Shown: positions 23,691-35,282 of the stretch, piece after piece
Layout of the letters: every line of letters begins with the position of its first letter
Position numbering within the stretch: the first letter of the stretch is position 1
Origin: Legionella busanensis
GTDB lineage: Bacteria; Pseudomonadota; Gammaproteobacteria; Legionellales; Legionellaceae
NCBI RefSeq assembly: GCF_900461525.1
Contig: NZ_UGOD01000001.1
Coordinates: forward strand, 2,697,001 to 2,761,000
DNA length: 64,000 bases
Direction of reading: 5' to 3'
The notes under the pieces: model-generated
Told to the model about the DNA's origin: nothing
Seen by the model: the letters and a program-made list of their open reading frames with translations, nothing else
Database searches by the model: none
Made by a program: the position numbers and the translations under genes

Positions 23691-24632
23691 GTGAATGACC
23701 CTATCATGTTATTGCCACAAACAAAGGTAGCTTATTTAGAACCTGGAGACACAATTGATATAATAGCGCCCTCTTCTAAGTGTCATCCAAGTGTCTTAGA
23801 TAAATTTAGAGACATCATTCATTCTTGGGGCCTTCATTGTCATATTCCGAATGATTTATTTGGTGATAATCTGCTTTATGCAAATAGTGATGAGAAACGC
23901 TTTACTCACCTACAAAATGCACTTTTAAATCCTAATTCAAAAGCTGTTTGGTGCTTACTAGGTGGATATGGTTCGACTAAATTAATGCCAAGGTTAAACC
24001 AAATTAAACTACCACCTCATTCTAAACTACTCATGGGATTTAGTGATATTACGGCATTACATATTTTCTTGCAGAATCAGTGGGGCTGGCCTACTTTAGG
24101 TGCTCCCTCCGGCTATCAAGTATCGCTAAATCGAGTTGCTAAAACATCTGTTGAACTCTTACAAACCATCCTCTTTAGGAAAGAAGAGTCGCTTATCTAT
24201 GATAATATTACGCCGCTAAACCAGTTAGCTAACAAACAACACACGATAACGGCGCCAATTATTGGAGGCAATTTACATTTAATTCAAGCAAGCCTTGGTA
24301 CATTTTGGCAAATTAATGCAACTGAAAAAATATTATTTATTGAAGAGTTTAATGAGCGAGCTTATCGTATCGATAGAATATTAGCCCAATTGGAGCAAGC
24401 CGGTATATTTAAAGGCGCAATGGCAATCTTGTTTGGCGATATGATTGATAAAGGCGAACCTGATGGTCGTTTTCTTGTTAAAGACGTCATCCAAGAGTTT
24501 GCAACACAATGTGCTTTGCCCGTACTGCAGATAAGTAACATTGGACATGGCGCAATTAATAATCCTCTTTTACTGGGCCACCCTGCAACATTAGTTATGA
24601 AAGAATCTTGTTATTTAGAATTTCTACTTTAG
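23691..24632 (+). CDS. ldcA: LD-carboxypeptidase (S66), muropeptide recycling
   Basis: A 313-residue cytoplasmic serine peptidase that removes the terminal D-Ala from murein tetrapeptides. The nucleophile is in LLMGFSDITAL (Ser118), the catalytic Glu in FIEEFNERAYRIDR and the His in ISNIGHGAINN (His286). The N-terminal GDTIDIIAPSS and GGYGSTKLMPRL blocks are typical. The first in-frame start is GTG at 23691; ATG at 23706 is possible. The last 140 bp are repeated as a decayed copy 300 bp downstream. Confidence 0.9.
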   Translation: MNDPIMLLPQTKVAYLEPGDTIDIIAPSSKCHPSVLDKFRDIIHSWGLHCHIPNDLFGDNLLYANSDEKRFTHLQNALLNPNSKAVWCLLGGYGSTKLMPRLNQIKLPPHSKLLMGFSDITALHIFLQNQWGWPTLGAPSGYQVSLNRVAKTSVELLQTILFRKEESLIYDNITPLNQLANKQHTITAPIIGGNLHLIQASLGTFWQINATEKILFIEEFNERAYRIDRILAQLEQAGIFKGAMAILFGDMIDKGEPDGRFLVKDVIQEFATQCALPVLQISNIGHGAINNPLLLGHPATLVMKESCYLEFLL

Positions 24633-24649
24633 ATTAATTTAAAACAGAA

Positions 24650-24850
24650 GAATAAACAGTATCAATACCTCGTTAGTGTCTTCAATAATATTATCTCAGG
24701 CATTATCCACAGTATATTTATCATTACCAGCGCCACCATCAAGAACGTCATTGCCGGCCAAGCCACTTAGACTATCATTAGCTCCATATCCTTTTATTAT
24801 ATCGTCATAATCTGTCCCTACTAAATTATCCTCGCTCTACCCATCTTTAA
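24650..24850 (-). pseudogene. RTX (Ca2+-binding nonapeptide repeat) gene fragment
   Basis: The minus strand encodes [20 protein letters not shown] and then [11 protein letters not shown], a clear run of GG-x-G-x-D type nonapeptide repeats. It is followed by an in-frame TGA (GGA to TGA is the simplest origin) and DNIIEDTNE, the standard RTX follow-on segment. There is no start, no large ORF and another stop upstream. This is the scrap of a secreted type I exported RTX protein, which no longer functions here. Confidence 0.75.
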
Positions 24851-24921
24851 TAATCATTACAACCTCGGCACATAAGTATATATTTTGAACAATTGCTTAT
24901 AAATATAGTAAGAAATATTAA

Positions 24922-25068
24922 ATTTTGACGATATGATTGATAAAGGCAAACCTGATAGTCGTTTTCTTGTTAAAGAAGTCATTTAAGAATTTGCAACACA
25001 GTGCGCTCTACTGATCTTACAGAAAAGTAATATTAAGCATGGCACAATTAATAACTCTCTGTTGCTGG
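24922..25068 (+). pseudogene. Decayed partial duplicate of the LD-carboxypeptidase gene
   Basis: These bases match 24436-24582 inside the intact gene over nearly their whole length (for example the shared GATATGATTGATAAAGGC). Differences include an early TAA within the Val-Ile-Gln region and loss of the GHG active-site context. The copy starts and ends abruptly, and its right end runs into a GTTGGGC hairpin repeat. The RTX scrap lies between the two copies, so a duplication or insertion event probably created both. Confidence 0.85.
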
Positions 25069-25158
25069 TTGGGCTAAACGAAGTGCAGCCCAACAAATTA
25101 TAAAATGATACATGCCTCAGAGTTATAACTGTTGGGCTACGTATGCTTAGCCCAATTT
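25067..25158. repeat. Two GTTGGGC-type hairpin repeats
   Basis: One copy spans about 25067-25097 (GGTTGGGCT ... AGCCCAACAA) and a second about 25127-25158 (TGTTGGGCTACG ... TAGCCCAATTT). They sit directly downstream of the ABC exporter gene on its strand and could stop its transcript, though no T-run of note follows. The same family is present at 13.2-13.4, 15.5 and 63.4 kb. Confidence 0.75.
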
Positions 25159-25165
25159 ACATATG

Positions 25166-27259
25166 CTATTCTTTATTTAATTTACTCAAATCAACTACCC
25201 TATCTGCCATAGCAATCGTTTCTTGGCGATGAGCAATAATAATTTGGGTTATTTCTAATGCTTTAAGAGATTGATTAATTGCTAATTCATTTCGCGCATC
25301 TAAATGACTAGTTGCTTCATCTAAAAATAATATTCTTGGCCTTTTATAAAGCGCTCGTGCTAATAAAATTCGCTGCTTTTGTCCCCCTGAAAATATAGAG
25401 CCCATCTCCCCTACTTGAGTTTCATATTGCATAGGAAGTTTTAAAATAGCTTCATGAATACAAGCAAGCTTTGCGACTTCATAAACATAATTGATATCAA
25501 TTTCATCATTAAAGAAGGTAATGTTTTCTAGTATGGAGCCGGTTAGTAAGCAGTCTTCTTGCATGACTGAGGCAGTTAGCTGTCGATAGTTTTTCAAACC
25601 AAAATGCTTAAGGTTAATATCATCAAGATATATCTCTCCTCCTTCAGGTACTAATAAGCCCATCATGACTTTCAACAAAGTTGATTTACCACAGCCAGAA
25701 GGTCCTATAATTGCTATTTTTTCTCCGACATTAACTGTGAGGCTAATATTTTTTAAAATGTAAGGATCACTTATATGGTAGCGAAAATTAATATTTCGAA
25801 TTTCTAATCTTCCTTGCATTAACTCATATCTTCCAGCCCCTTCTGCAACTACTTCAGGTTGTTGAAAAATTAAATCACCTAATCGATTTAATTGAATAGT
25901 AATAAGTTTATAATCGAAAGCATAACGAATAAAAGAAGACGCTTTGTTAATTAAAAGAAGACGATAAGCAAGAAAAGCGACTAACATACCAGTGGAAAAT
26001 CGATTTTCTAAAGTCAGCATTATACCAGCACATATAATAACGATATGATCAATCTGAAATAGTAATTGATTAATTATGTTATAAAACGTATTTAACCTAG
26101 ATATAATGATATCAGCGTTTAAAGCTTGAATATAATTATTATACCAAATATTAAAACGTACATGTTCTTTAGCAAACGTTTTAATTGGCATAATTCCTTG
26201 CAAGGTTTCTAAAAATATGGATGCTGCTTTTGCATGCTGCACAACTGAGTTTTCTGTTTGATTTTTTAGACTTTGATAAGATAAATAACGAATTATTAAA
26301 TATAATAAAAGACTACAGCAGGTGATTAACGTTAACTTTAAACTATATATAACCATCACTACCAAATTAATAATAACCATTAAACCATCAAGTATAGTAT
26401 TAATAAACTCAGTACTAATTTTTCTTTGTACTTGATCAATAGTTTGAAATTTTGCTTGAATGTCTCCTTTATAACGATGAAAGAAAAAATCCAATGGTAG
26501 TTTTAAAAGATGCTTAATTAAATTGGCTGAAAATTGTTCGGTAAGATAAGTTGTTAAATAATTAACAGAATAACTTCGACTATATTCTATAATACTTTGT
26601 AGCAATACAAAAATTAAAAAAGCGCAAACAATTATATAAAGATTATTTAAATTATTAGTATTAATAACATTGTCCATTACGTATTGAAGAAGTAATGGAT
26701 TTATTAAGGCTAATACTTCAATTGTGAGTGATAGTAAAATTAAAAATATGATAAATTTATTAATCCCGGCAATCATTTTCATAAAATGAAGAAGGGTTAA
26801 TTTGTTATTTGCAATAACCTTTTGAAAATTCACTCCCTTTTCAGCTTCTAAAACGATACCAGTAAAAAACTTAGATACTTCTGAAAACGTACAGTGTCTA
26901 ATACCAATAGCTGGATCGTGAATAATAACATGATTTTTTTTCACCTCTTTTAAAACAACAAAGTGATTCATATTCCAATGTAAAATAGCAGGACAGCGAA
27001 TAAATTTAAGATCTTCTAAATCAATACGTATTGCTCTGGTCTTAAAATTTAAACTTTGCAATACATGAGTGAGATCAAACATATTAATCCCTTTTATTGA
27101 TGGCCTGCTTATGTTTCTGATTGATGATAAATTAAGATCATGTCCCCAATAATTACTAATCATAACAACACAAGCATGGCCACATTCTGCAATTTCATTT
27201 TGAAATATAATGGGCAGTTTATTGCTTTTCTTTAGGCTAAAATTTAATATATTTTTCAC
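25166..27259 (-). CDS. C39 peptidase-containing ABC exporter (PCAT) of the graspetide cluster
   Basis: A 697-residue bifunctional exporter that cuts the leader after Gly-Gly and exports the core. The N-terminal C39 peptidase is intact: oxyanion Gln20, catalytic Cys26 in AECGHACVVMI, His99 in NMNHFVVL and Asp115 in IIHDPAIG. A six-helix membrane domain follows (about 160-430). The ATPase has Walker A GPSGCGKST from residue 519, signature FSGGQKQRILLARAL, Walker B ILFLDEATSHLD and the switch His in IIIAHR. The start is GTG overlapping the adaptor stop by four bases. Both 58-aa precursors in the cluster have matching Gly-Gly leaders. Confidence 0.93.
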   Translation of the reverse strand: MKNILNFSLKKSNKLPIIFQNEIAECGHACVVMISNYWGHDLNLSSIRNISRPSIKGINMFDLTHVLQSLNFKTRAIRIDLEDLKFIRCPAILHWNMNHFVVLKEVKKNHVIIHDPAIGIRHCTFSEVSKFFTGIVLEAEKGVNFQKVIANNKLTLLHFMKMIAGINKFIIFLILLSLTIEVLALINPLLLQYVMDNVINTNNLNNLYIIVCAFLIFVLLQSIIEYSRSYSVNYLTTYLTEQFSANLIKHLLKLPLDFFFHRYKGDIQAKFQTIDQVQRKISTEFINTILDGLMVIINLVVMVIYSLKLTLITCCSLLLYLIIRYLSYQSLKNQTENSVVQHAKAASIFLETLQGIMPIKTFAKEHVRFNIWYNNYIQALNADIIISRLNTFYNIINQLLFQIDHIVIICAGIMLTLENRFSTGMLVAFLAYRLLLINKASSFIRYAFDYKLITIQLNRLGDLIFQQPEVVAEGAGRYELMQGRLEIRNINFRYHISDPYILKNISLTVNVGEKIAIIGPSGCGKSTLLKVMMGLLVPEGGEIYLDDINLKHFGLKNYRQLTASVMQEDCLLTGSILENITFFNDEIDINYVYEVAKLACIHEAILKLPMQYETQVGEMGSIFSGGQKQRILLARALYKRPRILFLDEATSHLDARNELAINQSLKALEITQIIIAHRQETIAMADRVVDLSKLNKE

Positions 27260-28269
27260 AATTTAAGCTCTCCATACATACTAAAGATAGGATCTAATAT
27301 CCATTGCCATATTTTTCGCTTTGGTCCACTAATAATTGCAGTTATAGTCAAACCTTGTTGTAATTTTTTTGGTTGACCATATACCATGACATATTGGCTT
27401 TTTAACTTAGCGTTAACTTTATAATATGGATAGCCTACTTGAATGGGTTTTTCGTCTTCATTATCAGTTAAAATTGTTTCATCTATTGAATCAATAACTG
27501 CCTTGTAACTACCAAAACGCTTATAAGGAAACGCATCATAACGGACAATAATTTTACTCGCTTTATTAATAAAACCAATTTGATTAACAGGAATAAATAA
27601 ATTAGCAATTAATTTAGATTTTATAGGTAAAATTTTTACTAAAGGCTTAGCTAAATTTACATATTGTCCTTCTTTAAATATATTAGATGCAATAACACCA
27701 TCTATAGGAGAGTAAATTTTGTAAAATTGTTCTTGTTTATACTTAATAATATCTAACTCTACAGCATTAAGGTTACGATTAAGCTCAAATATTTCCTGTT
27801 TTTTAGTATTATAAAAATCTAAAGAAATGTATTTTTTAGTAAGTAATATTTTAATTTTTTTTAGCTGAATTGATTTATTAATAATGTCATTCTTAATTGA
27901 TTGTTTTCTTTTTATTAAATTTTCTAAAATATTATTTTTATCTAGAAGCTGATTATCTACTAAAGAATTAATTAATAAAATAGCTTCGCCTTGCTTAACA
28001 AATTCCCCCTGTTTTTTATAGCTTTTAATAATTACACCACTTTTACTTGGATATAGGCTAAAAACCCCTTTTGAATCATTTAAATAACCGATTACTACAA
28101 ATTTATCCGAAAATTCACCAAATACTATAAATAAAATAATTATTAATAAAATAACTAGGCTACTATAAGTAAAAAATTTAAATGACAAAGGAGTATTAAT
28201 TGAGATTACACCTAAATGACTTATTTTTTTTTGATTAAATACTTCTTGTCTAAAGAATTCTTTTTTCAT
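27256..28269 (-). CDS. HlyD-family secretion adaptor of the graspetide cluster
   Basis: A 337-residue membrane fusion protein with one N-terminal transmembrane anchor (residues about 32-52, LVILLIIILFIVFG). Next come a lipoyl-like half-motif (YPSKSGVIIKSYKKQGEFVK), a helical hairpin (about 120-180), the second half-motif (IYSPIDGVIASNIFKEGQYV) and a C-terminal beta-barrel. It would link the ABC exporter to an outer-membrane channel supplied from elsewhere. Its stop overlaps the exporter start (GTGA), and it lies 62 bp after the upstream ligase gene. Confidence 0.9.
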   Translation of the reverse strand: MKKEFFRQEVFNQKKISHLGVISINTPLSFKFFTYSSLVILLIIILFIVFGEFSDKFVVIGYLNDSKGVFSLYPSKSGVIIKSYKKQGEFVKQGEAILLINSLVDNQLLDKNNILENLIKRKQSIKNDIINKSIQLKKIKILLTKKYISLDFYNTKKQEIFELNRNLNAVELDIIKYKQEQFYKIYSPIDGVIASNIFKEGQYVNLAKPLVKILPIKSKLIANLFIPVNQIGFINKASKIIVRYDAFPYKRFGSYKAVIDSIDETILTDNEDEKPIQVGYPYYKVNAKLKSQYVMVYGQPKKLQQGLTITAIISGPKRKIWQWILDPIFSMYGELKL

Positions 28270-28331
28270 AATAATTAAATATCAGCTCTGTAGGTTAATA
28301 GATATAAACTACAGAGTTAGATTAAAAAATA

Positions 28332-29441
28332 TTATGCTGCTTCATTTGATTTTAAAGCATTGCGCATAATGTGTTTTTGTAGGTTTTCTTTTAACAGGAG
28401 AGAGGCTTGTTTTTCAAAGTCTGCTAAGTTAATACTATTTTTATCACTCCATTTGTAATGGATATTTTTATTTAGAATAAATTTAACAAATTTATCTAAC
28501 ATTTTTATTGTTGGGCAGCGATCTTCAATCCAAAGAAATTGACCTTGTTGATTAACCTCTAGAAAAAAATATTCATTATCAGGTGTCACGATAAAATCAA
28601 AGCAACCAAATACAATACCTAAAGCTTCCATAAAATTGCGTATTTTCTTTTCTATAGTATAAGGCAGGCAATAGGGCTCAATTCTTAATTCCATTGGTGG
28701 AATTGAGCGCCAATCTGTGAGCCCCTTAGAATGTTCTTGGGAAAAAATTTTTGCAGCCACAATGTGGTCGCCAAAGCAAGTTACACGAAGCTCATACTTT
28801 TTCTTAATATGTTTTTGAAAAATGCCAGGTGTTAATTGCAGTACATGATCTGGAGGTAAGTGTTCATTATAGATTGTTTTTGTATAAAATAATTTTAAAA
28901 CTCCTTTTTCATACCAGTAATGCGATGATAAGGGTTTGTAAATAACTTTATCATTTTTATAAACTTGCAAAAATTCTTTTATTTTTACTGGAGAATTTGT
29001 TATTAAAGTTGGTGGAATTTTAAATCCACATTGTAATGCGAGCTTTAATTGTAATAATTTAGAATTAGCCTGGTTAATAGACTCATATGGATTAATCCAG
29101 AAGGCGTCTTTAGCGAGTATAAAAGGAATACCATTATGAAATAACGTGTTTTCTTTTTTAATAAAGTCAATATCAGATTTAACAACGTTTTCATCAATAA
29201 AAGGACGTCTAGCTCGACGCCACCAAACTGCATCAATTTCTGTATGGTTTGTAACAGGACACTGCGATTCATTTTCTAAAAGCCACCATTGCTGTTCATT
29301 AGAAAAATAGATGCTATTAGTTTGCTTGGTGGGCATATCTGCAGTAAACCATAACAAACATTGATGTGATTTACTCTCTAAAGCTAATTTTACTATAATA
29401 GCATGTACATCATCTGGCTCTGTTGAGATTAGAATATTCAC
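28332..29441 (-). CDS. ATP-grasp peptide ligase 1 (graspetide/microviridin-type macrocyclase)
   Basis: A 369-residue ATP-grasp enzyme of the type that activates Asp/Glu side chains of a precursor and closes ester or amide bonds to Ser/Thr/Lys side chains (microviridin MvdC/MvdD-like). Visible blocks are an N-terminal STEPDDVHA, DAVWWRRARRPF, the ATP lysine region VIYKPLSS, QLTPGIFQKHIKKKYELR, VTCFGDHIVAAK and the metal/ATP site FDFIVTPDNEY ... FLEVNQQGQFLWIE. Start is GTG with AAGGA eight bases upstream. It follows precursor 1, with a 118-bp inverted-repeat element between them. It is clearly homologous to ligase 2. Confidence 0.88.
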   Translation of the reverse strand: MNILISTEPDDVHAIIVKLALESKSHQCLLWFTADMPTKQTNSIYFSNEQQWWLLENESQCPVTNHTEIDAVWWRRARRPFIDENVVKSDIDFIKKENTLFHNGIPFILAKDAFWINPYESINQANSKLLQLKLALQCGFKIPPTLITNSPVKIKEFLQVYKNDKVIYKPLSSHYWYEKGVLKLFYTKTIYNEHLPPDHVLQLTPGIFQKHIKKKYELRVTCFGDHIVAAKIFSQEHSKGLTDWRSIPPMELRIEPYCLPYTIEKKIRNFMEALGIVFGCFDFIVTPDNEYFFLEVNQQGQFLWIEDRCPTIKMLDKFVKFILNKNIHYKWSDKNSINLADFEKQASLLLKENLQKHIMRNALKSNEAA

Positions 29442-29525
29442 TACATTTTCCTTAATTTTCTACTTTTAAATCATAGGGTTTTAGTGTGCAATATTATTGT
29501 TTACCAAAACCCTTTGCAGATTAGT

Positions 29526-29643
29526 TATAGCGTTTCCTAGGAAGTTTCAGACAAAACAAGAGAGTAAGGCGAAGGAATGTACAAACAAGTACATAACTGA
29601 GCTAAACGAGCGTGTAGTATGAAACTTAGTGGAAGACGCTATA
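29526..29643. mobile_element. 118-bp inverted-repeat element (MITE-like)
   Basis: The ends are imperfect inverted repeats: left TATAGCGTTTCC-TAGGAAG-TTTCA, right TGAAACTTAGTGGAAG-ACGCTATA. The middle carries a nested hairpin ATGTAC-AAACAA-GTACAT. The right end is four bases from the stop codon of precursor 1, and the left end is 84 bp from the ligase 1 start. In the transcript it should fold into a long stem and could lower ligase expression relative to the precursor. No protein is encoded. Confidence 0.75.
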
Positions 29644-29647
29644 TTTA

Positions 29648-29824
29648 TTAATCCCAATCCATATCTAAATCTGTATCGGACACACCATGTCTGTTGGTAT
29701 AATAATCTGTAGTCTGATAAGTAACTTTTGCTGAGCCCCCTGCTACTTTTTCTAGCTCATCCTTACTTATTTCTGTAGCCAGGCTATATGCTAAAACACG
29801 ATTATTTTTTGAATTAATTTCCAT
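29648..29824 (-). CDS. Graspetide precursor peptide 1 (58 aa)
   Basis: A short gene with a good AGGA eight bases before the ATG. The 30-residue leader contains RVLAYSLATEISKDELEKV and ends in Ala-Gly-Gly, the site expected for the C39 exporter. The 28-residue core is rich in Thr and Asp: Thr35, Thr38, Thr39, Thr43, Ser49 and Thr51 as possible nucleophiles, and Asp40, 50, 52, 54, 56 and 58 as possible acceptors. It ends in SDTDLDMDWD. The leader and the GxxDTx(L/I)D(M/V) plus Asp-Trp end are shared with precursor 2. The call rests on this pairing and on the adjacent ATP-grasp gene; the bonds formed are not predictable by eye. Confidence 0.88.
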   Translation of the reverse strand: MEINSKNNRVLAYSLATEISKDELEKVAGGSAKVTYQTTDYYTNRHGVSDTDLDMDWD

Positions 29825-29936
29825 TTTTTTATTCCTATAAATACTTATTTAATACTTTCCATTTTATTAAATAAGTGGGTTGGACTTCTGTAATCTTCCT
29901 GAAGCAGAAAAAAGTTTGTTATAAAGCAATTTTATT

Positions 29937-30986
29937 TTAAACTTTCACAGTATTTAACCAATTTTGCCATGATTGTATATCTTTATCACTGTAATTTTTT
30001 CCACTAATTTCCTTAAGAATTAAATAAGCAAACTCATGATTATTGGGTTGTTTCAATTGTAAAATAGCAACTAATTTTTTTCGCCCTTTCTCTAAAATAA
30101 TTTTTTTATTGTTCTGAGATTTAGCAGCTGAAGAAAGTATAAATAAGGCTTTATTTCTATCTGTAGTATAAGGAGAATCTATTAAGGGAAGAACCTTGTT
30201 AGCGTCAATATCAAAAAGATGTGATTTTGCCATCGTCTGTCCCATTACTCGCATTACATTATTACGTACCGTTTCACTCCTATCATTAATACTAGAAGAC
30301 AAAGTTGTAATAATTTCATTAGGATCTTTAAAATGACCAACTAAAAACGCAGCTGCAGCACGCCTTTCAGGGTTAGGATCGTCAGTTAATGTTTTTTTAA
30401 TTAGCTTTTTTTGTTTAATTGCACCTTTATTAAATACATTTAAATAAGGTTGTAAAGAAGGATTATTAAAACCTGAAACACAATGATAGACTGGGCAAGT
30501 AGAATCACTTGGGCTAAGCTTATTTTCATTCAATAAACGCATTTCTAACTGATCAAACTTAATCCGTTTATTAATTAAATCATTTTGATTAGTTTTATTT
30601 TTACTAATATTAATTTTTGGTTGAACATAATGTAATCTATGCTTTTCATCATGACGCACTACTTCAATAGTAGTATAATAATTTTTTTCTGCTGGATAGT
30701 AGATTGTTTGAAAATCTACAAAGGCGTAATGTTCATTTTTTTTAATTCTTTCGACTAAATATTTTTTTTTCATTGCTAGATTAAGTAATTCTCTTTCTTG
30801 TTTTTTAGCATCATTCATCAAAATAATTTGATTAGTGTTATTAATTAATTTTTTTAGCTCAGATGAATATTTTTTTAATACCTGATTTGCATGATTAGAA
30901 TTATCACCATATAAATCTATAAATGTATCAGCACTTATTTGTCCTGAAAGAAATAAACAAGAAGTAAATAAAGCCCTTTTTAACAT
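29937..30986 (-). CDS. Periplasmic HEAT-repeat protein inside the graspetide cluster
   Basis: A 349-residue precursor with a signal peptide (ALFTSCLFLSGQISA, cleavage near residue 19). The N-terminal half is lysine-rich and helical with a mid-protein Cys pair (CPVYHC). The C-terminal half has HEAT-type helical repeats: DDPNPERRAAAAFLVGHF, then INDRSETVRNNVMRVMGQ, then SPYTTDRNKALFILSSAA. Its ATG overlaps the ligase 2 stop by seven bases, so it is translationally coupled to a biosynthetic gene. A role in immunity, in scaffolding maturation or in handling the exported peptide is possible; none is shown. It resembles no graspetide tailoring enzyme I know. Confidence 0.8.
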   Translation of the reverse strand: MLKRALFTSCLFLSGQISADTFIDLYGDNSNHANQVLKKYSSELKKLINNTNQIILMNDAKKQERELLNLAMKKKYLVERIKKNEHYAFVDFQTIYYPAEKNYYTTIEVVRHDEKHRLHYVQPKINISKNKTNQNDLINKRIKFDQLEMRLLNENKLSPSDSTCPVYHCVSGFNNPSLQPYLNVFNKGAIKQKKLIKKTLTDDPNPERRAAAAFLVGHFKDPNEIITTLSSSINDRSETVRNNVMRVMGQTMAKSHLFDIDANKVLPLIDSPYTTDRNKALFILSSAAKSQNNKKIILEKGRKKLVAILQLKQPNNHEFAYLILKEISGKNYSDKDIQSWQNWLNTVKV

Positions 30987-32098
30987 GCCTCTCCCCTATT
31001 GATAGTTTTAAATTTATTTAGATTTACATGATTTAATAAATTTTTTGTAATTAAGCTTTGCATTCTGTTGCGATATTTATCAATAGAATGAGTTACACTT
31101 CTTTCATTCCACTGAAAGTTTACTGTACGCTCAATAAGAAAATTAACGAAAATATCAAGCATTTTAAAGTTTGGATTATATTCCTCTATCCATAAAAATT
31201 GGCCTTGCTCATTTACTTCAAGAAAAATATATTCATCATCAGGTGTAACAATAAAATCAAATGCACCAAAAATAATTCCAAGCTTACGCATGAATTTTCT
31301 TAGGCGCTGTTCAATAGCAAATGGTAAACGGTAAGGTTCAATATTCATTTTATCAGGATAGATAGCTCGCCAATCGACGCTACCTTTATTATGAGTTTGC
31401 GAATCTAATTTTGCAGCAACAATATAATCACCAAAACATGTTATTCGTAATTCATATTTCTTCTTAATATGTTTTTGAAAAATTCCTGGTGTTAACTGTA
31501 ATACTTTATCTGGCGGGAGGTTTGATAAATTTAACTTAGCTGTATAGGAAACTTTAACATACTTTTCTTCAAACCAGAAACTAGAATATAAAGGCTTATA
31601 AATGACGCCATCTTTTTCATATTCTGCTAGAAAATTACGTATTTCTTGAGGATCGTTTGAGCACAAAGTTTTTGGGATAATAAATCCACATTGATCGGCT
31701 AATCTTAATTGCAACAGTTTCCAATTTGCTCTTATAGCAGCCTCTTTAGGATTTACCCACCAAGCATTGGGCGCAATATTTTGGGTTAGAGATTCGTAAA
31801 ATACAATATTTTCTCTTTTTATAAAAGAAAAATCATCTGGGTGAACAGCCTGTTCAGGTAAAAAAGGTTTTCGCACTCTGCGCCACCAGACTACGTCATA
31901 TTCTTGACTCATATAAGATTTAGATTTATCTGAACTTTTCCACAGATAAAAATCTTTATCAATTAAAACAGAGTTCTTTTGTTTTGTTGGATGATCTGCT
32001 GTGAATAATAATTTTACATAATGTCCTATTGATTCTAGAGCTAATTTAACTAATACAGCATGTGTATCATCGGGTTCAGTTAAAATTAAATACTTCAT
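30980..32098 (-). CDS. ATP-grasp peptide ligase 2 (graspetide macrocyclase)
   Basis: A 372-residue paralogue of ligase 1, colinear over its whole length: LTEPDDTHA, DVVWWRRVRKPF, VIYKPLYSSFWF, LQLTPGIFQKHIKKKYELR, ITCFGDYIVAAK and FDFIVTPDDEYIFLEVNEQG. The catalytic and metal-binding blocks are all intact. It is the first long gene after precursor 2 and ends inside the start of the HEAT-repeat gene. Each ligase may serve its own precursor, or one may make esters and the other amides as in microviridin pathways; the sequence does not decide. Confidence 0.88.
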   Translation of the reverse strand: MKYLILTEPDDTHAVLVKLALESIGHYVKLLFTADHPTKQKNSVLIDKDFYLWKSSDKSKSYMSQEYDVVWWRRVRKPFLPEQAVHPDDFSFIKRENIVFYESLTQNIAPNAWWVNPKEAAIRANWKLLQLRLADQCGFIIPKTLCSNDPQEIRNFLAEYEKDGVIYKPLYSSFWFEEKYVKVSYTAKLNLSNLPPDKVLQLTPGIFQKHIKKKYELRITCFGDYIVAAKLDSQTHNKGSVDWRAIYPDKMNIEPYRLPFAIEQRLRKFMRKLGIIFGAFDFIVTPDDEYIFLEVNEQGQFLWIEEYNPNFKMLDIFVNFLIERTVNFQWNERSVTHSIDKYRNRMQSLITKNLLNHVNLNKFKTINRGEAC

Positions 32099-32258
32099 TA
32101 TAAAATCCGATTTTATCCTATTAACTTCATAAAGTTGCTTCTGCCTACTTAAGCTTAGTGATTTTATTGCCCTTTATTCCTTAAATTTGCATTTCGCTAA
32201 ACTTAAAGCTATGAGACAGAAGCATACTTAACATCATTTATTTTAAATTTTTATATGA

Positions 32259-32435
32259 TTACCAATCTACTGAAACATCTATGACGGTATCCCACTGCCC
32301 AGTACTCCCTGTTGGAGTGCATGTTGCTCTTGATGTCATTTTATAACCACTACCTCCTGAAACCTGCTCTAAATCATCATGATTAATTTCCTTTGCTAAT
32401 TGATAAGCTAAGGCTCTTTCTTTATTACTTTCCAT
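32259..32435 (-). CDS. Graspetide precursor peptide 2 (58 aa)
   Basis: Begins at an ATG with AGGAG five bases upstream. The 28-residue leader has RALAYQLAKEINHDDLEQV and ends Ser-Gly-Gly. The 30-residue core contains Thr34, Ser35, Thr38, Thr40, Thr42, Ser44, Thr45 and Thr50 as possible nucleophiles, acceptors Asp49, Asp53 and Asp57, and one Cys (39). It ends in DTVIDVSVDW. It has the same length as precursor 1, with 13 of about 20 leader positions identical by eye, but a clearly different core. It is the first gene of the minus-strand cluster, 160 bp before ligase 2. Confidence 0.88.
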   Translation of the reverse strand: MESNKERALAYQLAKEINHDDLEQVSGGSGYKMTSRATCTPTGSTGQWDTVIDVSVDW

Positions 32436-32545
32436 ATTTTCTCCTAATGCAAGGTTGGTTTGTTATGTGTTCCATCAAATTAGAGAAGAACATTTAATTA
32501 TTTATTTATAAATATTCTTCTTTAATTAAACGTCTTTACCATGCT

Positions 32546-32603
32546 ATTATAATTTATTCATTTTTTTAAAAATTCATTTATTTTTATTCGTTTTTATTCA
32601 TTA
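32546..32603. promoter_or_regulatory. Divergent control region with repeated TTTATTC(A/G) boxes
   Basis: On the minus strand a perfect -10 box TATAAT (bases 32546-32551 on the plus strand) points to the precursor 2 gene. Overlapping its -35 side are TTTATTC(A/G) boxes at 32553, 32583 and 32593, with a partial box near 32571. The last two are exactly 10 bp apart, one helical turn, and end in TTAAAA. A separate 13-bp palindrome GAATAA-T-TTATTC lies at 32637-32649, just ahead of the regulator gene. These are plausible operators for the XRE-type regulator; binding is inferred. Confidence 0.55.
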
Positions 32604-32665
32604 AAACGTATTATGATTGTTTAGTCAAGAAAAAATGAATAATTTATTCTATTTTATAGGTGCTT

Positions 32666-33310
32666 ATGAATAATTACTCTATTTGTGAAAATTTACGCAA
32701 GCTAATGAAATTACATAGCGAGCTGTCTTTAAGTGAGTTAGCAAGACAAACCAAAATTCCTCAGCCGACTTTGCATCACCTATTAAATGGCATTACTAAA
32801 AAACCCAGAAAGAAAGTTTTGGAGAGCTTAGCTAGTTATTTTAATATTTCAATTGCTCAGCTTATGGGAGAAGATAATTTATACGAGCCTATTTCAGAAG
32901 ATATAAAGAGAAGCTTTAAAATTCATACTGTTCCTATTATAAATTGGGATATGTTAAAATATTGGCCTAATAATTATAAAGAAGCAGGCCAACTTGGCGA
33001 GATAGTACTCACTAGAGATATGAGTGAATATTCATTTGCTTTAATCATGAAACATGCTCTCACTGATCCCTTTTTCCCAGAAGGTTCTATTTTAATATTT
33101 GATTTTAAACAACAACCAAAGGACCGAGAATTCATAATTGTTAATTCCTTTAAATACAATAAAATCATTTTAAACCGTTTGTTTATTGAAAAATCCGACC
33201 ACTTTATTAAGCAAGAACAACCTAACGGTGATGTTAAATTAATTAAGTTAGATCTTAATAAAGACAAAATATTAGGTTCACTTATTGAAGCAAGATTAAT
33301 GCAATTTTAA
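32666..33310 (+). CDS. XRE-type regulator with an S24-like C-terminal domain
   Basis: A 214-residue protein. The N-terminal helix-turn-helix is LSELARQTKIPQPTLHHLLN (about 23-42). The C-terminal half has the LexA/phage-repressor fold pattern (PFFPEGSILIFD, REFIIVNSFKYNKIILNRLF), but the Ser and Lys needed for self-cleavage are not in place: KHALTDPFFPEG lacks the Ser and LNRL replaces the usual VKRL. It is therefore probably a dimerising or sensing domain. ATG at 32666 has TAGG five bases upstream, better than GTG at 32660. It is divergent from the graspetide operon and is its likely regulator. Confidence 0.82.
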   Translation: MNNYSICENLRKLMKLHSELSLSELARQTKIPQPTLHHLLNGITKKPRKKVLESLASYFNISIAQLMGEDNLYEPISEDIKRSFKIHTVPIINWDMLKYWPNNYKEAGQLGEIVLTRDMSEYSFALIMKHALTDPFFPEGSILIFDFKQQPKDREFIIVNSFKYNKIILNRLFIEKSDHFIKQEQPNGDVKLIKLDLNKDKILGSLIEARLMQF

Positions 33311-33402
33311 TTGCAACGTAACCCTATTAGGTGGTTAAATAAATTTAATTATACTTGTATGATGATCTTTGTTTCTAATATTAAAATGAAATTGTTTAAC
33401 AT

Positions 33403-33423
33403 TTTATTCATTTTTATTCATTA
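33403..33423. promoter_or_regulatory. Second copy of the paired TTTATTCA box downstream of the regulator
   Basis: Two TTTATTCA boxes 10 bp apart followed by TTAAA, identical in layout to 32583-32604 on the other side of the regulator gene. It may be a second operator site, allowing looping, or the end of a duplicated segment. Confidence 0.4.
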
Positions 33424-33443
33424 AATAAGGAATTTTGTCAGTA

Positions 33444-33569
33444 TTAGCAGATCGAACTAACACTTGTTCCACCTACCATTAAGTAGTTTTCTTTTTCAAA
33501 GTACCAAATATAAGTAATTTTATTAGTTTTTCTTTTATTGCTATCTCCATATTTTTGCCAGGCAATAAA
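33444..33569 (-). pseudogene. Open C-terminal fragment of an unknown gene
   Basis: A 41-codon minus-strand frame with AWQKYGDSNKRKTNK, ITYIWYFEKENYLMVGG and a Ser-Ile-Cys end, bounded upstream by TAG and lacking a start codon with a ribosome site. The amino-acid pattern looks coding, so I read it as the tail of a lost gene. It lies between the graspetide regulator and the cold-shock gene. Confidence 0.25.
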
Positions 33570-33618
33570 CTATCGCAATAGGGTCAATAACTGCTATTGA
33601 TTTCGCTTTATTGCAAAC

Positions 33619-33831
33619 TCAATCGATAACTTGAACTTGTCTAGCAAACTCACCTTTTTCACCTCGAGCTAGAAGGAAGCTAACACGCTGCCCGGGTTTT
33701 AACTCTTTATAACCTTGCGTTTGTACTTCTGAAAAATGAATAAATATTTCTCTATTATCTCGATCAGAACTAATAAAACCATAGCCTTTGATTTTATTAA
33801 AGCGTACCACTGTACCAGTTTCTGTTTGCAT
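33619..33831 (-). CDS. Cold-shock domain protein
   Basis: A 70-residue nucleic-acid-binding beta-barrel. Both RNA-binding motifs are present: RNP1 KGYGFISSD and RNP2 IFIHFSEV. The N-terminus is GTVVRFNKIKGYGF and the C-terminus LARGEKGEFARQVQVID. AGGA precedes the ATG. It binds single-stranded RNA or DNA and relieves secondary structure. The DEAD-box helicase gene lies 29 bp downstream on the same strand (its stop is at 33861, upstream in transcription), so the helicase and this gene may share a transcript; both would act on RNA structure. Confidence 0.92.
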   Translation of the reverse strand: MQTETGTVVRFNKIKGYGFISSDRDNREIFIHFSEVQTQGYKELKPGQRVSFLLARGEKGEFARQVQVID

Positions 33832-33860
33832 TAATTTTCCTTTCTACCTTACCTCAATTA

Positions 33861-35282
33861 TTATTTTAATTTTCTTACCCCTACTTTCCGACCTTTCAAT
33901 TTACCTGTTTGTAAATAATGACAAACTTTATCTGCCTGCTCTTGCACAATTGCTACGTAGGAATTAAAGGTTGCAATATTAATTTTACCAATACTGTCAT
34001 AAGCTAATCCTGCTCCTTTTGTTAAAGTACCTACGATATCGGATGGTCGGATTTTATCTTTTTTTCCAACAGTGAGACTTAAGGTTACCATCTGAGGCGG
34101 GTTAAAAGATTCACTCTTTTTGTTCAATTTATTAATATCGCCCCAAGGCAAAGGAAACCCTAATTGCTCTTCAATAAGTAAAAGTCGAGATGCATCGGCC
34201 GGCGTTGTGATACTAAATGCTTTTCCACTTTTTTCAGCTCGGCCCGTACGGCCAATACGATGAATGTGAACCTCGGGTTCAAATGCCAAGTCATAATTGA
34301 TGACTGCAGCGAGTTCTTCAATATCTAAACCTCGAGCAGCCACATCAGTTGCCACTAAAATGGGGCAGCTATAATTAGCAAAGCGAATTAATGTTAAATC
34401 TCGCTCGGATTGATCCATATCACCATGAAGAGCCATAGCATAAAAACCCTCCTTAGCCAGCAATGATGTAAGTTCGGAAGTTTGCTCTTTAGTATTGCAA
34501 AAAATGAGCGTGGAGCTTGGTTGATGATGTAACAATAAGGTTTTTAACAATGAAAATTTATCAGCTTGGCGTGCAACCTCAAAAAAACATTGTTCAATAG
34601 TTGTGTCTGTTTTTTCTTCTTCAATGACAATTATTTGTGGGTTACATAGGAATTTGCTAGCAAGCTCTTTAATTTGTGGCGGGTAGGTTGCAGAAAACAA
34701 TAAAGTTTGTCGTTTAAGAGGAGTATGTGAAATAATTTGTTGTATAGCATTAAAAAAACCCATATCTAGCATTCTGTCCGCTTCATCTAAAACCAATAAT
34801 TTTAAATTCTGTAAAGATAATGATCCTTTAGTCAAATGCTTTTGTAATCGCCCCGGCGTGCCTACGACAATATGAGCCCCATATTTTAGCGACTCTGTTT
34901 GAGATGTCATAGGTATTCCACCTGATAAATTAAGAATTTTGATATTAGGTAAGGTTCTCGCTAATTTTCTTAAAGCCTGAGTTACTTGCTCGGCTAATTC
35001 ACGAGTAGGACAGATAACTAATGATTGAATAGCATACCAGTTTATATTAAGCAAATTTAACAGCACCAAGCCAAAAGCCGCCGTTTTTCCACTACCAGTC
35101 TTTGCTTGCGTAATAACGTCAAGGCCTTGAAGCATGACAGGCAAACTTTGTTTTTGAACAGCTGTCATGTCCTTATAATTTAAAGAAACCAGATTAGTTA
35201 ATAATTCTTTTCGTAGCGGTAGCAAGGAAAAAGAAAGCTCATCTGTCTTTTCTTTCTTATCTTGAGCTTTAATAGGAAGCAT
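33861..35282 (-). CDS. dbpA: DEAD-box ATP-dependent RNA helicase DbpA
   Basis: A 473-residue helicase. The Q motif region is MTAVQKQSLPVMLQGLDV. Walker A is AKTGSGKTAAF, followed by PTRELAEQV, TPGRL, VLDEADRMLDMGF and SATYP. In domain 2, VATDVAARGLDI and HRIGRTGR are present. The C-terminal 75 residues form the DbpA RRM-like domain (KKDKIRPSDIVGTLTKGAGL, IGKINIATFNSYVAI), which in E. coli targets hairpin 92 of 23S rRNA for late large-subunit assembly. It lies directly upstream of the cold-shock gene in transcription. Confidence 0.93.
   Translation of the reverse strand: MLPIKAQDKKEKTDELSFSLLPLRKELLTNLVSLNYKDMTAVQKQSLPVMLQGLDVITQAKTGSGKTAAFGLVLLNLLNINWYAIQSLVICPTRELAEQVTQALRKLARTLPNIKILNLSGGIPMTSQTESLKYGAHIVVGTPGRLQKHLTKGSLSLQNLKLLVLDEADRMLDMGFFNAIQQIISHTPLKRQTLLFSATYPPQIKELASKFLCNPQIIVIEEEKTDTTIEQCFFEVARQADKFSLLKTLLLHHQPSSTLIFCNTKEQTSELTSLLAKEGFYAMALHGDMDQSERDLTLIRFANYSCPILVATDVAARGLDIEELAAVINYDLAFEPEVHIHRIGRTGRAEKSGKAFSITTPADASRLLLIEEQLGFPLPWGDINKLNKKSESFNPPQMVTLSLTVGKKDKIRPSDIVGTLTKGAGLAYDSIGKINIATFNSYVAIVQEQADKVCHYLQTGKLKGRKVGVRKLK

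What the first reader, a model, noticed from the sequence alone, without database searches (positions are those of the whole stretch)
25166..33310. Apparently complete two-precursor graspetide (omega-ester/amide RiPP) cluster in a Legionella-like genome
The sequence shows, on one strand and in tight order, precursor 2, ATP-grasp ligase 2, HEAT-repeat protein, precursor 1, ATP-grasp ligase 1, HlyD adaptor and C39-ABC exporter, with a divergent regulator. The two ATP-grasp proteins carry the microviridin-ligase type FLEVN.QGQ and QKHIKKKYELR blocks. Both 58-aa genes end their leaders in Gly-Gly, matching an intact C39 protease (Gln20, Cys26, His99, Asp115). All parts needed to make and export cross-linked peptides are present and intact. 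Product, activity and target are unknown; it could be an antimicrobial, a protease inhibitor or a factor in host or amoeba interaction.
Basis: partly seen in the sequence, partly recalled or inferred. Interest (0 to 1): 0.92.

Follow-up and report, generated by a model that had tools for sequence, protein, structure and literature searches.

The report
Legionella cross-linked peptide (graspetide) operon
A Legionella-family bacterium carries an intact operon that very probably makes, trims and exports two small side-chain-cross-linked peptides; the class is already known from Legionella, but the operon also keeps a conserved, probably secreted repeat protein whose role has not been worked out.

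Summary
At 25166-32435 (- strand) lie precursor 2, ligase 2, a HEAT-repeat protein, precursor 1, ligase 1, HlyD adaptor and C39-ABC exporter, with a divergent HTH regulator at 32660-33310. All frames are open; the six genes tested are under purifying selection. The ligases are microviridin-type peptide ligases, so this is a graspetide cluster. It is not new in kind: a two-precursor Legionella pneumophila graspetide (Gra-7, group 8, three dehydrations per peptide) was published in 2022, and 68 of 143 genomes of the family match ligase 1. What I add: (1) 52 of 81 distinct precursor cores fit one symmetric ladder, T-x3-T-x3-T, loop, D-x3-D-x3-D, as do both window cores; outer Thr and outer Asp tend to be lost together (Fisher p 1e-5), which favours three nested bonds. 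(2) The cluster holds two precursor-ligase pairs from separate ligase clades, with matching leader signatures. (3) The HEAT protein is a conserved, probably periplasmic partner (51 of 61 loci; C-x3-H-C in 51 of 51) that co-occurs with the ligase across 143 genomes; I found it in no paper searched. Bond formation, HEAT function and bioactivity are untested.

The parts
32259..32435 (-). precursor 2, 58 aa; leader 32352-32435 (28 aa, ends GG), core 32262-32351 (30 aa); ladder T34, T38, T42 / D49, D53, D57
30980..32098 (-). ATP-grasp peptide ligase 2 (52-row lig2 clade)
   Evidence: TIGR04187 1.1e-55
29937..30986 (-). HEAT-repeat protein with signal-peptide-like N-terminus, DLYG and CPVYHC motifs; probable periplasmic partner
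29648..29824 (-). precursor 1, 58 aa; leader 29735-29824 (30 aa, ATEI signature, ends GG), core 29651-29734 (28 aa); ladder T35, T39, T43 / D50, D54, D58
29520..29645 (.). dispersed hairpin element between precursor 1 and ligase 1 (ends approximate, by eye); could set the precursor/ligase transcript ratio (inference)
28332..29441 (-). ATP-grasp peptide ligase 1 (9-row lig1 clade)
   Evidence: TIGR04187 4.4e-60
27256..28269 (-). HlyD-type periplasmic adaptor
   Evidence: HlyD_3 5.7e-16
25166..27259 (-). C39-peptidase ABC exporter (PCAT); Gln20, Cys26, His99, Asp115 present
32660..33310 (+). divergent Cro/C1-type HTH regulator
   Evidence: a homologue lies in 16 of 61 loci, in several at only 25-33% identity
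32440..32659 (.). divergent promoter region with TGAATAA/TTATTCA repeats, candidate operator
   Evidence: motif read by eye

Best explanation
An intact graspetide operon that makes two peptides by two precursor-ligase pairs. Each ligase binds its precursor's leader (ATEI type for pair 1, AKEI type for pair 2) and uses ATP to join three core Thr hydroxyls to three Asp carboxylates. The bonds form a nested, hairpin-like ladder (T3-D1, T2-D2, T1-D3). The C39 domain of the exporter cuts after Gly-Gly, and ABC plus HlyD send the 28- and 30-residue cores out (calculated [M+H]+ 3243.40 and 3195.45 with three bonds). The HEAT protein is exported to the periplasm and binds the shared scaffold of both peptides, for self-protection, maturation or trafficking. 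Shown by sequence: gene content, intactness, ligase family, core motif, co-occurrence, selection on six genes. Inferred: bond formation, connectivity, leader-ligase pairing, cleavage site, HEAT location and role. My confidence by step: graspetide cluster 0.95; three bonds per peptide 0.75; nested order 0.6; HEAT acting outside the cytosol on the product 0.5, as immunity 0.3.
For: Ligase family. A 3+3 motif at spacing 4 in 52 of 81 distinct cores, against a mean of 0.0 and maximum of 1 in 200 shuffles; other spacings at most 2 of 81. Of the 72 cores whose inner 2+2 fits the chosen register, T1 and D3 are both present in 52, both absent in 10 and discordant in 10, p 1.0e-5. Two ligase clades, with [AS]TEI leaders on 9 of 9 precursors beside lig1-clade ligases and on 4 of 75 others. 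HEAT and ligase together in 60 genomes, ligase alone in 9, HEAT alone in 2, neither in 72, of 143. dN/dS 0.07-0.19 against L. gresilensis for six genes. Published precedent Gra-7, three dehydrations each.
Against: No chemistry was tested. Ligase scores lie under NCBIfam's curated cut-offs. Of 81 cores, 29 do not fit the full 3+3 motif and some lack one partner of a nested pair (e.g. L064 9416, L066 9529, L099). The cores are related, so the p-values overstate independence; my register rule rewards filled outer slots too, and losing T1 and D3 together could also reflect shortened cores. In Gra-7 one ligase served both precursors, which argues against strict pairing. Three loci have ligase and exporter genes but no HEAT gene beside them (each of these genomes has a HEAT gene elsewhere). 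Two genomes of the class sample have weak HEAT hits (E 5e-4 and 9e-4) and no ligase hit. The HEAT structure model is poor over residues 1-175.
Confidence: 0.85

Rival explanations
1. Same graspetide operon, but the three bonds are interlocked or parallel (T1-D1, T2-D2, T3-D3), as in microviridin-like cages.
For: Equal spacing of donors and acceptors also gives three equal rings of this kind. Cage-like connectivity is known (PMC13097080 introduction passage).
Against: When T1 is missing from cores with the inner 2+2 register, D1 is present by construction and D3 is missing in 10 of 14. The variable loop (3-8) changes only the hairpin turn in the nested model.
Confidence: 0.3
2. The HEAT protein is an immunity or sequestration protein that protects the producer from its own peptides.
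For: Signal-peptide-like (hydrophobic) start in 47 of 51. One HEAT gene also in the clusters with two ligases. In two genomes (G074, G135) the HEAT frame is open beside a ligase remnant. The C-terminal model resembles designed peptide-binding armadillo proteins, weakly (TM by query about 0.3) and as a general property of the fold.
Against: Sequence is well conserved although cores vary; immunity proteins often diverge with their toxin (general knowledge). 9 of 69 ligase-bearing genomes lack HEAT, though at least G002, G005, G006, G026 and G031 have degenerate ligases or no exporter beside them. No antibacterial activity is known to me.
Confidence: 0.3
3. The HEAT protein is a maturation or export partner (second tailoring step, folding, hand-over to HlyD), with the invariant C-x3-H-C as a functional site.
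For: C-x3-H-C in 51 of 51; further invariant residues Y97, T106, R117, D235, N242, P272, D276-K279, Q313. Partner-dependent graspetides exist, although the partner of rosaritide acts with the ligase (PMC13097080, abstract).
Against: Seven of 61 loci have HEAT and ligase without exporter genes found beside them, some cut by contig ends, and three have the exporter without HEAT beside it.
Confidence: 0.35
4. The ligases are not peptide ligases but RimK/glutathione-synthase-like enzymes that happen to lie beside small ORFs.
For: ATP-grasp fold is shared; all NCBIfam scores are under curated cut-offs.
Against: The three peptide-maturase models TIGR04187, MvdC and MvdD score 178-204 bits for ligase 1 against 32 for RimK. 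A leader-bearing small ORF lies within 1.5 kb of the ligase in 54 of 61 loci.
Confidence: 0.03
5. A decaying or silent cluster.
For: Clusters decay elsewhere in the family (e.g. G138, G135, G074).
Against: All frames open; dN/dS 0.07-0.19 for six genes. Expression was not tested.
Confidence: 0.04

Closest known systems
Gra-7 of Legionella pneumophila (graspetide group 8; PMC9576775)
   Same: Legionella graspetide with two precursors, each dehydrated three times after expression in E. coli; LahT150 digestion placed the changes in the predicted core of precursor A, and failed for B (section 11 read; group from passage). That LahT150 is a C39-type protease is recalled.
   Different: One ligase was used for both precursors there; here there are two ligases from separate clades. 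I could not compare sequences (the accession lies in supplements, not open to me).
Microviridins (MdnB/MdnC, MvdC/MvdD)
   Same: Ligase family; ligase 1 matches the solved AMdnB and CdnC chains.
   Different: Interlocked cage (passage), different core and leader motif (PFFARFL leader passage; TxKxPSDxE(D/E) core recalled); here a T-x3-T-x3-T / D-x3-D-x3-D ladder with a double-Gly leader.
Nested (stem-loop) graspetides: OEP6-1, fuscimiditide, amycolimiditide (PMC12291112, passages)
   Same: Nested cross-links closing a hairpin; fuscimiditide's ligase tolerates many loop lengths.
   Different: Fuscimiditide and amycolimiditide carry an aspartimide made with a methyltransferase; none is encoded here.
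Partner-dependent graspetides rosaritide and corallotide (PMC13097080; abstract, passages, section 7)
   Same: Co-occurring extra proteins needed for or helping biosynthesis.
   Different: Rosaritide's partner MirC is a PpiC-type protein that copurifies with the ligase; here a HEAT protein with a signal-peptide-like start.

Membership tests
graspetide (omega-ester/amide RiPP) | ATP-grasp ligase of the peptide-maturase (MvdC/MvdD/TIGR04187) lineage | tested here: met
   best families are peptide maturases by 158 bits or more over RimK, though below curated cut-offs; solved relatives are graspetide-type ligases
graspetide (omega-ester/amide RiPP) | adjacent small precursor with leader and a core holding donor (S/T/K) and acceptor (D/E) residues in conserved spacing | tested here: met
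graspetide (omega-ester/amide RiPP) | side-chain macrolactone or macrolactam bonds (loss of 18 Da each) | not testable with these tools
   precedent Gra-7 only
graspetide group 8 | ligase falls in the published group 8 network | not testable with these tools
   network data and Gra-7 accession lie in supplements; Ramesh 2021 not held; Lee 2020 did not come up in the searches and was not looked up
graspetide group 8 | NHLM-type peptidase exporter in the cluster | tested here: inconclusive
   TIGR03796 is the best NCBIfam match, 7.7e-143, but at 477 bits under its 853 cut-off; group 8 stated to have high co-occurrence with this type
microviridin (group 1) | microviridin-type core and PFFARFL-like leader | tested here: not met
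   window precursors; leader motif named in PMC8939145, core motif recalled
double-glycine (C39) RiPP export | GG leader plus C39-ABC with Gln/Cys/His/Asp | tested here: met
   cleavage itself not testable
graspimiditide (group 13) | isoaspartyl methyltransferase in the cluster | tested here: not met
   none among the eight genes

The most novel reading that the evidence does not exclude
Legionellaceae, and one other gammaproteobacterial family sampled, share a graspetide system in which a secreted HEAT-repeat protein with an invariant C-x3-H-C site and a conserved Asn/Arg/Asp surface recognises the cross-linked hairpin itself, acting as a receptor or immunity protein for a whole peptide scaffold. 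In three sister species the system has been recast into an export-free pair: a leader peptide with a new tail plus an ATP-grasp pseudoenzyme, both under strong purifying selection.
Probability: 0.3. Interest if true: 0.65.

Novelty: new member of a known kind. Interest (0 to 1): 0.4.

Why it matters
It gives a clear, testable prediction for ring connectivity in a Legionella graspetide type with at least one partly characterised member, and marks a probably secreted HEAT protein as the part to study. A peptide system whose ligase is found in about half of the sampled genomes of a family that lives inside other cells (68 of 143, some of them remnants) probably matters to their ecology. Annotation of one relative calls the ligase, HEAT and precursor genes 'hypothetical protein', so the group is easy to overlook.

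Tried and rejected
Rejected: a non-peptide ATP-grasp role; a plasmid-borne cluster as evidence of mobility, because the only Legionella record among the 20 listed of 84 plasmid matches (L. adelaidensis 'plasmid 26') carries dnaA, dnaN, rpmH and rnpA and looks like a chromosome piece; an Rfam RNA at 24000-34000 (none at gathering score); a C-terminal peptidase domain for the regulator (only HTH models passed Pfam cut-offs, and the PDB matches are HTH regulators with a weak E 0.08 ribosomal-protein match).

Led nowhere: the HEAT structure job had only three sequences and gave mean pLDDT 56.8; only the C-terminal repeats were confident and the PDB search returned generic ARM/HEAT solenoids. Gra-7 sequences and Ramesh 2021 could not be compared. 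The plasmid-map paper names Legionellales but not graspetides or microviridins (passage).

Selection to keep in mind: 60 regions were fetched from the matches, not all of them; some genomes give two or three. 103 candidate precursors were found and 19 dropped for lacking the leader motif, so leader conservation is not independent evidence; the donor/acceptor pattern was not used for selection. Seven of 61 loci gave no precursor by this filter; three of them (L056-L058) hold a leader-like ORF without GG and L089 one with a GE site. Searches behind 'not in print': (listings and abstract starts) and word counts in two papers; one library of open papers only.
Full report
What is there. The finding's gene order and coordinates are right, and the C39 residues Gln20, Cys26, His99 and Asp115 are present. 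The window lies on the 3.41-Mb main contig of a 3.93-Mb genome. The closest named relative found is L. gresilensis, with 94% identical ligase 1; the family is taken to be Legionellaceae from its named members (L. gresilensis, L. brunensis, L. adelaidensis).

What the parts are. Both ligases match peptide maturases best (TIGR04187, MvdC, MvdD; 168-204 bits against 30-32 for RimK), though below the curated cut-offs. Ligase 1 matches solved graspetide-type ligases. The exporter carries C39, ABC membrane and ABC ATPase domains above Pfam cut-offs; its best NCBIfam match is the NHLP bacteriocin exporter, again below cut-off. The regulator has a Cro/C1-type HTH domain.

It is a family-wide system. 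A ligase 1 homologue is found in 11 of 11 genomes of the genus (three of these are the degenerate ligases described below) and in 68 of 143 of the family. A profile search of the order, also 143 genomes, gives 69. Both counts include some remnants. I fetched 60 regions. Of 61 loci with the window, 42 hold ligase, HEAT, HlyD and ABC; 7 HEAT and ligase only; 6 ligase only; 3 ligase, HlyD and ABC without HEAT; 2 HEAT, HlyD and ligase; 1 HlyD and ligase. Several are cut by contig ends. The common order is precursor(s)-ligase-HEAT-HlyD-ABC. The window's order inserts a second precursor-ligase pair before HlyD.

The cores share a ladder. I collected 103 candidate precursors, kept 84 by a leader motif and got 81 distinct cores. 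Three Ser/Thr at spacing 4, a loop of 3-12, and three Asp/Glu at spacing 4 occur in 52 of 81; 200 shuffles give a mean of 0.0 and a maximum of 1, and no other spacing from 1 to 6 exceeds 2. The 2+2 version at spacing 4 occurs in 74 of 81 (shuffle mean 4.9, maximum 11); the next highest is spacing 6 with 13 (shuffle maximum 10). With the loop held to 3-9, again 52 cores have all six; in these the last Asp is Asp in 52 of 52 and the first two acceptors in 51 of 52, and apart from the G after T3 (39 of 52) other positions vary more. Core 1 uses T35, T39, T43 / D50, D54, D58; core 2 T34, T38, T42 / D49, D53, D57; both have a 6-residue loop.

Connectivity. Each core got a register by a scoring rule that first asks for a filled inner 2+2 and then rewards filled slots, T-G and a loop of 6 or 7. 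In the 72 cores where the inner 2+2 fits, T1 and D3 are both present in 52, both absent in 10, T1 only in 6, D3 only in 4 (Fisher p 1.0e-5). Outer donor and outer acceptor being lost together is what nested bonds predict. The cores are related, the rule also rewards filled outer slots, and some cores are short at both ends, so this is support, not proof. Exceptions are listed in the Against line.

Two pairs. A tree of 73 ligases puts ligase 1 in a 9-row clade (97/85) and ligase 2 in a 52-row clade (100/99) (three long-branched outgroup rows are flagged there). Precursors beside the 9-row clade all carry an [AS]TEI leader (9 of 9), against 4 of 75 others (p 2e-9, not corrected for descent). One of the four (L071) lies beside a ligase remnant. 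This suggests, but does not show, separate recognition; in Gra-7 one ligase modified both precursors.

The HEAT protein. It occurs in 51 of 61 loci. Its N-terminus is hydrophobic by my cut-off in 47 of 51, a D-x-x-G motif follows in 50 of 51, and C-x3-H-C is in 51 of 51. Further residues are invariant in all 51. Across 143 genomes HEAT and ligase occur together in 60, ligase alone in 9, HEAT alone in 2 (one weak, one a remnant), neither in 72. The three loci with exporter but no HEAT beside it lie in genomes with a HEAT gene elsewhere (G023, G054, G089). In 369 genomes sampled from the class, HEAT hits occur in 7 and ligase hits in 22. Of the 7, three are of the own family, two (G246 at 2.7e-94, G460 at 4e-17) are of one other family and also have ligases, and two (G207, G410) are weak hits without a ligase hit. 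In G246 and at one G460 locus HEAT lies beside a precursor-like ORF and a ligase (L124, L125). Ligases of other families in that sample (e.g. G174, G201, G319) come without HEAT hits. In G074 and G135 the HEAT frame is open next to a ligase remnant. A location outside the cytosol and contact with the product are inferences from the N-terminus and synteny. The structure model supports only an ARM/HEAT-like C-terminal domain.

Selection. Against L. gresilensis dN/dS is 0.068 (ligase 1), 0.148 (ligase 2), 0.191 (HEAT), 0.072 and 0.109 (precursors 1 and 2), 0.09 (ABC). The regulator and HlyD were not tested.

What is known. PMC9576775 (section 11 read; other passages) reports Gra-7 from L. pneumophila: two precursors, one ligase, three dehydrations each, group 8. 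PMC13097080 (abstract, passages, section 7) says group 8 has high co-occurrence with an NHLM-type transporter and does not use the word HEAT in its main text. PMC8939145 (abstract and passages, part 2 of section 6, section 7) lists associated families, also without that word. PMC12291112 was seen in passages only. So the class and its presence in Legionella are known; the HEAT partner, the ladder across 81 cores and the two-clade pairing I found in none of the papers seen. Supplements and two key papers (Lee 2020, Ramesh 2021) were not seen, so this is not proof of absence.

Verdict. A real, intact graspetide operon, ordinary in kind, with a well-conserved unexplained partner protein.

Noticed in passing
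L056 8555-8746 (-), L058 7487-7678 (+) and the same ORF in L057; ligase-like ORFs L056 7369-8517, L057 7336-8490, L058 7714-8868: In three of 11 genomes of the window's genus a 63-aa ORF keeps the leader but has no Gly-Gly site and an Arg-rich tail, beside a ligase-like ORF that has lost conserved residues (D282 to S, N297 to H, R219 to V); no HEAT, HlyD or ABC found beside it. dN/dS 0.056-0.076 (ligase, three pairs) and 0.036 (63 aa, one pair), with dS near 2 in three of these four comparisons: a conserved, probably repurposed pair with a pseudoenzyme.
   Followed up: partly
window about 29520-29645: Dispersed hairpin element (folding z -5.6) with nine partial matches elsewhere in the genome at E up to 0.01; also between precursor 1 and ligase 1 in the L. 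gresilensis locus (L049).
   Followed up: partly
window 24924-25068: Partial copy (81% over 145 bases) of the 3' part of the neighbouring gene at 23691-24632, which looks like an LD-carboxypeptidase by reading; no family search was run on it.
   Followed up: no
NZ_LR134435.1 (L136): L. adelaidensis 'plasmid 26' carries dnaA, dnaN, rpmH, rnpA and a graspetide cluster; looks like a chromosome piece labelled as plasmid. Ligase, HEAT and the three precursors are annotated 'hypothetical protein'.
   Followed up: partly
L129, L130 (G074, G135): Open HEAT frame beside a ligase remnant, followed by a short frame: in L130 a HlyD match of 180 aa near the contig end, in L129 a 52-aa frame that looks HlyD-like by eye only.
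   Followed up: partly
L126 7031-8017, L127 13539-14540 and 4712-5482 (G460): Divergent HEAT-like proteins with no ligase match in the fetched stretches, in a genome of another family of the class.
   Followed up: no
L090 6989-7171: Precursor core with Cys in the middle donor position; could be an unusual donor or a lost bond.
   Followed up: no
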